64,000 nucleotides of DNA from Austropuccinia psidii (taxonomy: Eukaryota; Basidiomycota; Pucciniomycetes; Pucciniales; Sphaerophragmiaceae), in assembly GCA_023105745.1 (NCBI GenBank), contig JALGQZ010000004.1, positions 34,676,437 through 34,740,436 on the forward strand, in the 5' to 3' direction. Positions 12,785 through 16,062 of this stretch are shown here, one piece after another. A program made the position numbers and the translations under genes. Numbering within the stretch: position 1 is the stretch's first letter; every line of letters begins with the position of its first letter. A model generated the notes under the pieces. It saw only the letters and a program-made list of their open reading frames with translations, was not told the origin of the DNA and did not search any database.

Positions 12785-14705
12785 TGTGAGCCTTGAGGTA
12801 TATTTTACATACCCAAATAGGCCACAATTATATTAAAAAGAAATTTTGAATTATGCACAACTCATAAGTCATGCATATATCCAAAATTCATCATTTTCAA
12901 TTTCAGAAAAGATGAATAACTTTTTATTGAGTAAGTAAATCCATGGATTTAAGACCAGATTTGGATTCTACACAAAAATTCACCTAGGGTAGCTCCATAG
13001 AGTGAATAAGCTCAATTTAAGTATTTGAGGTGGTAAAATGGAAAATACTTCAATACCACATCATTAATACCACATAAAAGATCCATGAAAATTTTTGTTT
13101 TTCTGATTTTTAGCCAAAATATTGGGAAAGTGAGAAATCCCATGTTACATATACACTAAGAATAGTGTTATGCATGTTTTGAGCACTTAATATCATGGTA
13201 TTCTTACATGGACTTTTGGTACACCCATAGTGGATATCTCACTTTAAGCTTAAATTACTATTTTGACGTAAAAAATAGGCAAGGGGGACAAAAGACATCA
13301 AAGAGAGCCAAAGTACCCAACTTCTGAGGCCTCAGAGGCGTGGATAGCTCCAGAGCTTGGATCCATGGCTCATCTTGGCCCAATTGGTAAACCAAAACTC
13401 TTTGGGAACTTGGTTACCAAGTTACAACTACTGTAAAACACCAGAAAATAGCAAATAACCTGCTATTTTGATGTGCCAAGGAGGTAATGAGCTACTTACA
13501 CTCCTGTAACCATGTCAATTACTAATGAATTTCCATGGATAAACCCCAAAAGAGTAATTAAAACCCTTTTGGGACCCATATTCATTGATTTACCTCATAG
13601 CAACCAGCAAAACACTGCTATTTGCAATTCTACGTAGAAATGAGGTAAAAACTTCGAAAATTCATTAAAAATACAATTCTTAATGAATCCTTCTGAAACT
13701 TTAAGGACTAAAGGAGAACTGTATTATCTATGGTAAAACCAAAAAAAATTACAGTTTTACTAGTAAAATTAAAAGTTTTACTTACAGTCCATTTTTGGTT
13801 ATTCTACGTGAAACACTGAATCTTCAAAAATTCACAGTAATTACAACCCGTGATGAAATTGGCAATAACATCGATAACTTTGAGAAATCAATGATTATTT
13901 TAGAATAAAAGAAGATTTACAAGTGTTACTCCTTTTATTCTTAACCATATTGGGGTTGGTAGTCACATAAAAGCATCAATTAAGTAATTATGATAATCTT
14001 ACGTGACAACTGATGATGCAATCAATAATCCAAAATGGTTTATTGTTTTCTCACTCACTGGTTTTTCAGTTTGCTCCATGGCACGCCTCTGTGAACTGTT
14101 GTTGACTTAAAAGAGGCCTTCTCTTGCTGTTTTTTCCACATCATCATCTTATCAATTTATTAAATCATTATTACCAACAAGTAAGTATTAGTTACAGCTA
14201 TTCTTAAGTGTTTTAAATCTTTCAGAATCAATCAGAAAGACGTGAAATCAAAGAATCTAACTATACATTGTTGTAATACTGTTATAAATCCTTTTGATCT
14301 CTTAAATCCACAATTCCACGTCAAATTTCTCTACTTATATCTATCAATAAATTCTTTGGAGTATTAGTGAGTCATTTATCTTTAATTCTTAAAGTTTTTC
14401 TCTAGTAATAGTTTTCTTCAAGAATTATCTTTATAATTATTCTTGTAAAAGATAATTATATATTAAAATAATTTTATTATTTTAATAAAAGAAGTTTTTA
14501 TTATTAAATTCTTCTTGTAATTGATTCTTGTAGACAATTACTGCTCACTGTTATAATCACTAGTAGTGTATAACACGTGAAAGAAATAATTTTATAATTA
14601 TTTAATTGTGGTTATAATAATTTTTATTATTATATTTCATAAGAACAGACATAGTACTGTTGATTAATAGTAATATTATCATCAGTTTCATAGTCACATC
14701 TTACA
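12785..14705 (+). repeat. element 1 5' LTR
   Basis: Starts TGTGAGCCTTGAGG and ends CACATCTTACA. It contains a TATA-like TTAAAAG at 14107-14113 and a perfect splice donor GTAAGT at 14181. The promoter, start site and donor together define a short untranslated first exon. A diverged solo LTR at 48318-50228 preserves all of these marks. Confidence 0.93.
14104..14180 (+). promoter_or_regulatory. element 1 core promoter and first exon ending at an LTR splice donor
   Basis: GACTTAAAAGAGGCC (14104-14118) is a TATA-like box. The same place in element 2 reads GACATAAAAAGAGTC. Transcription probably begins some 25-35 bp downstream. From there to 14180 there is no ATG. The exon ends ACCAACAA before GTAAGT. 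Because its last base is A, splicing to the acceptor at 15088-15089, which is followed by TG, creates an ATG. The box and donor are seen directly; the transcription start is inferred. Confidence 0.55.
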
Positions 14706-16062
14706 TTTGGGGGCCTGGCCGTGTTTTTTGAACCTTGCACCCTTAATTAATATACTTTTAAGCTCTAAAATATATTAATTTAATTAATTTTTTTCTTTCA
14801 ATTTGAAGTTAAAATATTTTTATTTTTGAAATTGTTTTAAAATCTTTTTCATTGAGGAATTTGGTTTAATTTTATATTGTTTTTACACGTGGCTTTTTCA
14901 CATCCAAAAACTTATAAAATTATTCTTTGAGTTACTCTGAATTAATTTTCATTCAAAATCTTAAATTTTAATTTCTTTCTTTAAAAAGAATAATTTTTTT
15001 AATAATAAAAAATATAAAACTTATAAAAAATCTTTAAAAATATTTTAAAAGTATAAAAAAATAATTTTTCTCTTTTATAATTTTTCTAGTGTCTTTAATC
15101 AAATACTGTGCAGCTGGCAACAGACTCAGTAAAAGATATATTACTAGTCCAGAATCTGAAGACAGTATTGAGGTGCAGATTGCTAAAAGAGGCACCTTTT
15201 TCAACTCCGAAAAAGCTAAATTACCACCAAAAGGTGTGTATTTTATCTTATATTTTCACCTTTTATCTTTAAATTGACGTGAAAATGGTGCATACCAGAA
15301 ATGGAAGCAACTATTCAGTCCAACCAGATGGATGTGGACAAGGAAGAGGCAAGAGCAAATCCAGAAGTGCCAAGTCTTCCACAAGAAAGACACATTTGGA
15401 GGATGCCAGAGTTGCCCCCCATTCCCCAAGGTCTGTACCAACAGATTTTGACGTAAATTCTGAGCCTGAACTAATTTATGATAATATTTCCAGGGCTGAA
15501 CCATTTTCAAGTGGCAGCAATAGAAATATATCAGAGCCAGTACAAAAATTGGTTCAGAGCAGCCAAAGAAGAGGAGTGGGAAATCTGCCCAAGCCTTTGG
15601 CAGGGGGCCATGAACTCCTACTTACACATCAAGAGCTTTCTGGGTCAGGAGAAGACCATAGAACTCTTAGGAGGTTGGAGCCCCCTGTCTTGCAAAGACA
15701 AGGTCAAAAAGATAAAGAATTGGTTGAAGAACCAGAGTCTTTTATCCATAGACCAGAAGAAAGAGTTGGAAATGACTCCAACTTTGGAGACAGAGGCACC
15801 AGTGGCATCTACCAGCTCCAAACCAGCTCCAGAAGCATCCAAGGACAAGCCCAAAGGACCTCAAAAGAAACAGAGAGGTCCCAAGAACCATCAAGGCAAG
15901 GGAAAAGGCAAAGCCAATTGGCACAGACCTTACCAACAAGGGTACAGGATCCCCAGATTGGAGCCTTCAGCAGTGGACAGTGTCTTCAATATGGCCAGAA
16001 CTCTTATGGAATTCACAGCCAAGGAGCAGGAAAGGATGAACAGGACTTTTCCACGCAAATAA
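14180..16062 (+). CDS. spliced overlapping reading frame (ORF1) of element 1, 281 aa, function unknown
   Basis: Model: A at 14180, then 15090-15233, 15299-15430 and 15494-16062, totalling 846 nt in one frame. Introns are 14181-15089 (GTAAGT...TTTCTAG), 15234-15298 (GTGTGT...ACCAG) and 15431-15493 (GTCTGT...TTCCAG). The ATG is assembled across the first junction. The third intron (63 nt) holds in-frame stops and must be removed. Reading: an acidic N-terminal part, then MPELPPIP near the third junction, a probably helical Trp-rich domain (EIYQSQYKNWF, PSLW, MNSYL, WLKNQS), a basic Lys/Gly-rich stretch (KGKGKANW) suggesting RNA binding, and a conserved end (VFNMARTLMEF). I recognise no known family. 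Element 2 preserves the last exon, with about 70% identity over 90 residues. The frame differs from Gag-Pol, which is also open here. Expression is not shown. Confidence 0.65.
14706..14723 (+). other. element 1 primer-binding site region
   Basis: Directly after the LTR lies TTTGGGGGCCTGGCCGTG. The same 18 bases follow the 5' LTR of element 2 on the other strand, although the sequence beyond diverges. Position and conservation fit a primer-binding site, with TGG at its second position. I cannot name the matching tRNA. The LTR splice donor lies upstream, so the spliced RNA would lack this site and could not be reverse transcribed in the usual way. Confidence 0.6.

What the first reader, a model, noticed from the sequence alone, without database searches (positions are those of the whole stretch)
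14180..16062. A hidden spliced protein overlaps Gag-Pol in a rust chromovirus
In element 1, joining A14180, 15090-15233, 15299-15430 and 15494-16062 gives an uninterrupted 281-codon frame, while the unspliced frame is closed by stops inside the introns. It is in a different frame from Gag-Pol, which is also open here. The homologous frame is preserved in the distantly related element 2. Over 90 aligned codons without gaps I count about 63 identities in this frame and about 36 in the Gag frame. The protein has a Trp-rich helical-looking domain and a basic stretch, and I recognise no family. Ty3/Gypsy elements normally make a single Gag or Gag-Pol, so an extra overlapping protein would be unusual.
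Basis: partly seen in the sequence, partly recalled or inferred. Interest (0 to 1): 0.9.

Follow-up and report, generated by a model that had tools for sequence, protein, structure and literature searches.

The report
Spliced second gene overlapping Gag-Pol
A very abundant jumping gene in the myrtle rust fungus appears to make a second, hidden protein from spliced RNA, read in a different frame through the same DNA that begins its main Gag-Pol protein, so that splicing seems to decide which of the two is made.

Summary
The four pieces join into an open 281-codon frame. The frame is real: between elements 1 and 2 its last exon shows pN/pS 0.31, like ordinary Gag-Pol (0.26), with changes concentrated at its own third positions. 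The overlapping Gag frame is also real, but only as an open frame: 0 stops against 7.7 and 8.1 expected (0 of 20,000 shuffles each), with no detectable amino-acid conservation beyond that. New here: the ~1.2 kb leader before the Gag start holds no ATG (0 versus 15.3 expected; element 2: 5 versus 22.8), and the Gag ATG (15285) lies inside an intron of the hidden gene. So unspliced RNA should make Gag-Pol from its first AUG, whereas splicing removes that AUG and the primer-site region and builds A|UG for the hidden protein. All three hidden exons are open in 30 of 30 young genomic copies. The database holds 841 relatives; the 120 listed are all Austropuccinia psidii 'hypothetical proteins'. No RNA was examined. 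Closest known: CERV of the nematode element Cer1. Function, perhaps export of unspliced RNA, is inference.

The parts
12785..14705 (+). 5' LTR of element 1 (3' LTR 21128-23033); GTTAA at 12780-12784 and 23034-23038 as 5-bp target duplication
   Evidence: repeat pairs; pair differs at 30 of 1915 aligned sites; TG..CA ends and flanking GTTAA read
14107..14116 (+). TATA-like box; the ATG-free leader begins just upstream (last upstream ATG at 14078)
   Evidence: aligned position in the LTRs of elements 1, 2 and a solo LTR; ATG positions; start site itself inferred
14180..14180 (+). last base of exon 1, first base of the split start codon A|TG; donor GTAAGT follows
   Evidence: GTAAGT or GTAAAG in all 5 LTRs of the window; GT in 29 of 29 genomic copies readable there, 1 of 30 not covered
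14181..15089 (+). putative intron 1 (909 nt); spans the LTR end and the likely primer binding site just after 14705
   Evidence: GT..TAG ends; acceptor AG|TG in 30 of 30 copies while its pyrimidine tract varies
15090..15233 (+). exon 2 of the hidden protein (47 codons plus one base after the split ATG)
   Evidence: open in 30 of 30 copies; 144 nt in the window copy, 159 nt in the other 29; homologous peptide joined in frame in annotated P0218 and P0223, 2 of 318 fetched proteins; similarity P 0.0015-0.019 by shuffling
15234..15298 (+). putative intron 2 (65 nt), weak donor GTGTGT; contains the Gag-Pol start codon
   Evidence: annotated element-2-like partial proteins P0220, P0227, P0228 begin next to its acceptor
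15285..15287 (+). Gag-Pol start codon ATG, first ATG of the unspliced RNA if the start site is near 14140
   Evidence: 0 ATG in 14079-15284; present in 30 of 30 copies; element-2-like proteins P0240, P0258, P0303 start MTPTR or MTPSR at the same place
15299..15430 (+). exon 3 of the hidden protein; in-frame ATG at 15301
   Evidence: open in 30 of 30 copies; annotated start of 53 of 120 listed relatives by pattern
15431..15493 (+). putative intron 3 (63 nt; 66 nt in element 2): multiple of three, open in the Gag frame, closed in the hidden frame; donor GT in 29 of 30 copies, GC in one
   Evidence: differs between elements at 32 of 60 sites against 40 of 128 in exon 3 and 193 of 562 in exon 4
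15494..16062 (+). exon 4 of the hidden protein: helical Trp-containing domain, basic Lys/Gly/Gln linker, C-terminal helix, stop
   Evidence: pN/pS 0.31; 841 database relatives; model helices 9-63, 69-98, 164-190 of the 194-aa ORF (mean pLDDT 62)
15285..19520 (+). Gag-Pol frame up to its first in-frame stop (RT, RNase H); integrase and chromo-like parts follow in the same frame to 20987
   Evidence: Pfam RVT_1, RT_RNaseH, Integrase_H2C2, rve, SH3_Tf2-1, weak Chromo
41204..41769 (-). exon 4 of the homologous hidden protein in element 2
41770..41835 (-). intron 3 of element 2 (66 nt, Gag frame open, hidden frame closed)
42031..42147 (-). exon 2 of element 2 (27 nt shorter, same phase at the donor; stop at codon 2 in this copy)

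Best explanation
Element 1 carries a second protein gene ('ORF-X', 232 to 286 aa depending on start and copy) that overlaps the start of Gag-Pol in another frame and is expressed from spliced RNA. The unspliced RNA has an ATG-free leader of about 1.15 kb, so a scanning ribosome first meets ATG 15285 and makes Gag-Pol, whose first ~260 residues are only a stop-free passage through ORF-X. When the introns are removed, the Gag-Pol start and the primer-site region are lost and the first AUG becomes the A|UG built at the exon 1-exon 2 junction (or ATG 15301 if only introns 2 and 3 go), giving ORF-X. Splicing thus separates an RNA for Gag-Pol and reverse transcription from an RNA for ORF-X. Shown: both frames, their different constraints, the ATG-free leader, recurring splice signals. 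Inferred: the splicing, the start sites and the order of use. Inferred with low confidence: ORF-X, a basic and helical protein, helps unspliced element RNA escape splicing and leave the nucleus, as CERV does for Cer1.
For: Open joined frame. Hidden-frame third positions change most in exon 4 (93 of 187, versus 53 of 187 and 47 of 188), unlike Gag downstream where Gag third positions do (55 of 97). pN/pS 0.31 versus 0.26 in Gag-Pol, pS not depressed (0.76 versus 0.66). Gag-frame stops 0 versus 7.7 and 8.1 expected, 0 of 20,000 in each element; third frame of element 1: 10 versus about 10; TAC/TAT not depleted, so not TpA avoidance. Leader ATGs 0 versus 15.3 and 5 versus 22.8 (0 of 2000 shuffles each), upstream LTR normal: 27 versus 25 and 14 versus 15.7. 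Donor in the LTR in all 5 LTRs. Exons 2, 3 and 4 open in 30 of 30 copies; exon 2 joined in frame in P0218 and P0223. Intron 3 more diverged than both flanking exons.
Against: No transcript data. Donors of introns 2 and 3 are weak (GTGTGT, GTCTGT). Element 2 has a stop at codon 2 of the exon-2 frame, broken exon 3, and no ATG at the 15301 site. Exon-2 homology between the families is modest, and only 2 of 318 fetched relatives show exon 2, none of them from the element-1 family; most gene finders do not model a split start codon (recalled). The 30 copies are near-identical and were picked by identity of the exon-4 protein, so they are not independent and say little about selection; exon 3 among them shows none (3 synonymous, 10 not). 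12 of 30 have one or two leader ATGs, one has GC at donor 3, and 4 of 30 have a closed Gag frame. Without conditioning on stops, Gag similarity exceeds permutation (P 0.0099), so weak constraint there is not excluded. The function has no direct support; the structure models are poor and no known family matches.
Confidence: 0.72

Rival explanations
1. ORF-X is the old N-terminal part of Gag and Gag-Pol is reached from it by programmed -1 frameshifting near 16062; no splicing is needed.
For: ORF-X ends upstream of where the Gag frame begins to show constraint, and the Gag frame has no Met codon between 15285 and 16440 (translation).
Against: It gives no reason for the absence of Gag-frame stops across ORF-X, for the recurring Gag ATG with an ATG-free leader, or for the hidden-frame stops in the 63/66-nt gap. 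No slippery-site search was run.
Confidence: 0.08
2. ORF-X is made from unspliced RNA by leaky scanning or internal initiation (e.g. ATG 15301 or 15478), and the gaps are not introns.
For: ATG 15301 lies 16 nt after the Gag ATG; some annotated copies start inside intron 3 (10 of 120 by pattern).
Against: From 15301 the hidden frame stops inside intron 3 in element 1, and the same gap is closed in element 2; element 2 has no ATG at the place of 15478; conserved residues on both sides of a more diverged gap.
Confidence: 0.08
3. The Gag frame across ORF-X is not translated; its openness is a by-product of codon bias or dinucleotide avoidance, and Gag starts downstream.
For: No clear amino-acid constraint in the Gag frame (67 of 176 identities, like 63 of 176 in the third frame).
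Against: Synonymous-codon shuffles that keep codon use still give about 8 stops; TAC/TAT at the same place are not depleted; the third frame holds 10 and 9 stops.
Confidence: 0.05
4. ORF-X is real and spliced but structural (a nucleocapsid-like or particle-associated partner of Gag, or a copy-number regulator) rather than an RNA-export factor.
For: Basic Lys/Gly-rich linker and C-terminal helix; no nuclear export test was possible.
Against: None specific; an intron-bearing genome RNA creates a need for an export factor, as in Cer1.
Confidence: 0.35

Closest known systems
CERV of Cer1 (C. elegans Ty3/Gypsy element; PMC10309623: abstract, passages and one discussion section seen)
   Same: Ty3/Gypsy element; novel lineage-specific protein from a spliced mRNA; part of it (exon 4) read in a frame other than Gag; genome RNA keeps the splice sites and has a single Gag-Pol frame
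   Different: [quoted passage not shown] ORF-X lies at the 5' end, wholly out of the Gag frame, its start codon is split by the first intron, and the Gag start sits in its second intron. Homology was not tested; host kingdoms differ
Rev/Rex-type regulators of complex retroviruses (recalled; Rev also described in the Cer1 discussion section)
   Same: small basic protein from spliced RNA overlapping other genes; full-length RNA must leave the nucleus unspliced
   Different: no RNA-binding motif or export signal was tested, no homology tested, position upstream of gag
BARE1 spliced Gag RNA (Copia, barley; PMC3735527: abstract and passages seen)
   Same: separate spliced and unspliced RNA pools from one element
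   Different: there the splice closes the pol frame so that Gag alone is made; no second protein
Ogre ORF1 (plants; passages in PMC6431247, PMC1142308 and PMC3735527 seen)
   Same: extra ORF of unknown function before gag, long leader, spliced transcripts
   Different: the Ogre ORF lies between LTR and gag start and its splicing is between ORFs; PMC1142308 (2005) states that no intron upstream of gag was then reported for any LTR retroelement
Hypothetical proteins O181_xxxxxx of Austropuccinia psidii MF-1
   Same: the same protein family, up to 94% identical over part and 92% over 97% of the query
   Different: named only 'hypothetical protein' in the listing; no link to an overlapping retrotransposon frame seen

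Membership tests
Ty3/Gypsy LTR retrotransposon | LTR pair with short target duplication | tested here: met
   LTRs 12785-14705 and 21128-23033, GTTAA on both sides
Ty3/Gypsy LTR retrotransposon | order RT-RNase H-integrase | tested here: met
Chromovirus | chromodomain after integrase | tested here: inconclusive
   Chromo E 0.0015, 18.8 bits, below the cut-off of 25.1; SH3_Tf2-1 E 3.8e-11
Overlapping (overprinted) gene pair | both frames open beyond chance | tested here: met
   Gag frame 0 of 20,000 shuffles in each element; hidden frame given the Gag protein P 0.005 and 0.010 of 5000
Overlapping (overprinted) gene pair | amino-acid constraint in each frame | tested here: not met
   hidden pN/pS 0.31; Gag frame naive dN/dS 2.0, similarity no higher than in stop-free permutations (P 0.41, n = 32; P 0.0099 over all 20,000)
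CERV-like spliced regulator | encoded by a spliced element mRNA | not testable with these tools
   no RNA data; splice signals and frames only
CERV-like spliced regulator | reading frame other than Gag | tested here: met
CERV-like spliced regulator | needed for export of genome RNA | not testable with these tools
   functional assay
CERV-like spliced regulator | homology to CERV | not tested
   CERV sequence not fetched
Known protein domain families | match to Pfam, NCBIfam or solved structures | tested here: not met
   Pfam: none at E up to 1 for ORF-X of either element; NCBIfam: none for element 1, one chance-level match (E 0.089) for element 2; PDB: one match at E 0.01 to isopropylmalate synthase, judged chance

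The most novel reading that the evidence does not exclude
A fungal Ty3/Gypsy element runs a splicing switch like that of complex retroviruses: an AUG-free leader leads ribosomes on unspliced RNA to a Gag-Pol start that sits inside an intron, while splicing deletes that start and the primer site, assembles a new start codon across the first splice junction and makes an overlapping basic protein that exports or protects the unspliced genome RNA. The protein became constrained while Gag-Pol was merely stretched, stop-free, across it.
Probability: 0.3. Interest if true: 0.88.

Novelty: new variant of a known kind. Interest (0 to 1): 0.74.

Why it matters
The first look at the host genome gave 40,328 candidate places for this protein (150 scored), in a genome that a paper describes as over 90% transposable elements, mostly Gypsy (PMC8063080, passages). 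If right, one of the most successful retrotransposons of a plant pathogen carries an unrecognised regulatory gene and a compact way to split genome RNA from messenger RNA. It gives a fungal counterpart to Cer1 and retroviral regulators, a clear case of one frame kept open without detectable amino-acid constraint over a constrained one, and a warning that many 'hypothetical proteins' of this rust (at least the 120 listed) are retrotransposon genes. Public RNA-seq could test it at once.

Tried and rejected
Fold comparison: two structure models (alignments A1 with 50 rows, A2 with 56 rows) had mean pLDDT 57.4 and 62.3; too poor, so no fold search was run. Family searches gave nothing. A scan of viral contigs found 2 pattern matches, neither confirmed. 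Relatives outside Austropuccinia psidii were not seen, but only the best 120 of 841 and of 444 hits are listed and these are that species (120 of 120; 119 of 120, one unnamed), so absence elsewhere is not shown. Exon-4 substitutions among the 30 genomic copies (14 synonymous, 1 not) were set aside because those copies were picked by identity of that very protein. Other parts: Gag downstream 55 synonymous, 46 not, 2 stops (expected fractions 0.24, 0.71, 0.05); exon 3 gave 3 to 10 in either frame, no signal. In one search the script could read the whole joined frame in only 5 of 30 copies (281 or 286 codons, open in all 5) because its patterns were too strict, and one search had one copy in the wrong orientation; searches replaced them. 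TpA avoidance as the cause of the open Gag frame was tested and dropped. A sample of diverged copies was not obtained. Ten paper searches (open-licence papers, listings of titles and abstract starts, capped at 10 to 15 rows) showed no overlapping spliced gene of this kind in fungi; I did not read most listed papers.
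Full report
WHAT IS THERE. Element 1 is an LTR retrotransposon with both ends: LTRs 12785-14705 and 21128-23033 (30 differences in 1915 aligned sites), GTTAA repeated on both flanks, reverse transcriptase, RNase H, integrase, Tf2-1-type SH3 and a weak chromodomain match. Element 2 lies on the other strand, LTR pair 56 differences in 2035 sites. Both are fairly young, so their mutual divergence (Gag-Pol 739 of 1025 residues identical) mostly reflects evolution of functional lineages, although both copies carry stops in the pol frame. 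The window is from a 1.015-Gb assembly; the listed relatives are named Austropuccinia psidii MF-1 (120 of 120 for the hidden frame; 94 of 95 for the Gag frame, the other unnamed). In one search, 95 of 1738 long candidates match the Gag frame across the overlap, 28 of them over at least 98% of the 262 residues.

THE JOINED FRAME. The second and third introns are 65 and 63 nt; the third is 66 nt in element 2, in both cases a multiple of three, closed in the hidden frame and open in the Gag frame. This gap is more diverged between the elements (32 of 60 sites) than exon 3 (40 of 128) and exon 4 (193 of 562).

WHICH FRAME IS UNDER SELECTION. In exon 4 the hidden third positions differ at 93 of 187 sites, first and second at 53 of 187 and 47 of 188; the Gag third position is thus the least diverged. 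Downstream (16300-16600) the Gag third position takes over, 55 of 97 against 35 of 96 and 28 of 97; between them (16063-16300) no position stands out. By Nei-Gojobori counts the hidden exon has pS 0.757 and pN 0.232 (ratio 0.31), Gag-Pol 16437-19517 has 0.659 and 0.172 (0.26). Synonymous sites of the hidden frame are therefore not visibly held back by the Gag frame. Read in the Gag frame the same stretch has 67 of 176 identities and naive dN/dS 2.0, much like the third frame, 63 of 176.

YET THE GAG FRAME IS KEPT OPEN. If synonymous codons of the hidden protein are shuffled, keeping its own codon use, the Gag frame should hold 7.7 stops in element 1 and 8.1 in element 2; both hold none, and 0 of 20,000 shuffles did so in either. 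The third frame has 10 stops in element 1 against 9.6-10.3 expected and 9 in element 2 against 6.4-6.8. TAC and TAT in the same frame are about as frequent as expected, so this is avoidance of stops and not of the TA step. Over all 20,000 context permutations the real Gag similarity is high (297 against mean 265, P 0.0099), but stops drive this: among the 32 that happened to be stop-free the mean is 291 (P 0.41); 32 is few, so weak constraint is not excluded. Gag-Pol seems to run through ORF-X as a tolerated passage.

THE LEADER. From 14079 to 15284 element 1 has no ATG; 15.3 are expected (0 of 2000 shuffles). The upstream part of the LTR has 27 against 25. Element 2 shows 5 against 22.8 in its leader and 14 against 15.7 upstream; the solo LTR has 5 against 10.3. 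The ATG-free stretch starts beside a TATA-like box that is followed, about 70 nt on, by a splice donor present in all five LTRs of the window. ATG 15285, in context AAAATGG, is thus the first AUG of unspliced RNA and recurs in the element-2 family (P0240, P0258, P0303). It lies inside intron 2. With intron 1 removed the first AUG is the A|UG at 14180/15090. If intron 2 alone is retained, that frame stops at TGA 15275, a few bases before ATG 15285, and in element 2 likewise just before its Gag ATG.

COPIES AND RELATIVES. Of 150 scored matches, all without stops in exon 4, thirty loci (one is the window's own copy) were fetched. In these: exons 2, 3 and 4 are open in 30 of 30, exon 2 being 144 nt in the window copy and 159 nt in 29; donor 1 GT in 29 of 29 covered; acceptor 1 AG|TG, donor 2, acceptors 2 and 3 in 30 of 30; donor 3 GT in 29 and GC in 1; Gag ATG in 30; Gag frame open over 15285-16962 in 26 and closed in 4; leader with 0 ATG in 18 (one of them not covered to its 5' end), one in 11, two in 1. 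The copies are near-identical and were ranked by exon-4 protein identity, so they show that the layout is carried by many young copies, not that each part is selected. In the annotated proteome, 51 of 120 listed relatives join exon 3 to exon 4 across intron 3 (pattern count), and two element-2-like partial proteins, P0218 and P0223, join exons 2, 3 and 4; aligned with element 2 they begin at about the residue after the split start codon. No other of 318 fetched proteins shows exon 2 by pattern. Exon-2 peptides of the two families are similar at P 0.0015-0.019.

WHAT IT PROBABLY DOES. Conserved helical Trp-containing domain, disordered basic linker, confident C-terminal helix. No domain family matches. 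An element whose genome RNA must stay unspliced while its own introns are functional needs a way to export that RNA; Cer1 solves it with CERV, a spliced, partly out-of-frame protein (PMC10309623). By analogy I propose ORF-X as such a factor, at about 0.3-0.4; a structural or copy-number role is the main rival.

NOVELTY. Spliced accessory proteins of Ty3/Gypsy elements exist. The full out-of-frame overlap, split start codon and Gag start within an intron did not appear for fungi in the listings I saw (titles and abstract starts, open-licence papers). Hence a new variant of a known kind.

Noticed in passing
G000:C1:29623283 / 29631754 / 29640225 and C1:31348743 / 31357196 / 31365649: Copies at 99% protein identity spaced about 8.46 kb apart on one strand, as if element units lay in tandem sharing LTRs.
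   Followed up: no
14706-14723 and element 2 just inside its 5' LTR: TTTGGGGGCCTGGCCGTG is identical in the two otherwise diverged elements right after the LTR; probably the primer binding site, primer not identified.
   Followed up: no
48308-50228: A solo LTR related to element 1 with the same donor site but 5 ATGs in the leader part (10.3 expected).
   Followed up: partly
8484-9886 (-): Two ORFs that look to me like a transposase-related protein (impression only; not searched).
   Followed up: no
59779-60275: A 219-nt direct repeat, copies 94% alike, 278 nt from start to start.
   Followed up: no
19518-19520 and 20367-20369: At least two in-frame stops in the pol frame of element 1, between RNase H and integrase and after integrase; this copy is not intact for Pol although both 5' frames are open.
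   Followed up: partly
16063-16300: Stretch after ORF-X where no codon position stands out between elements 1 and 2.
   Followed up: no
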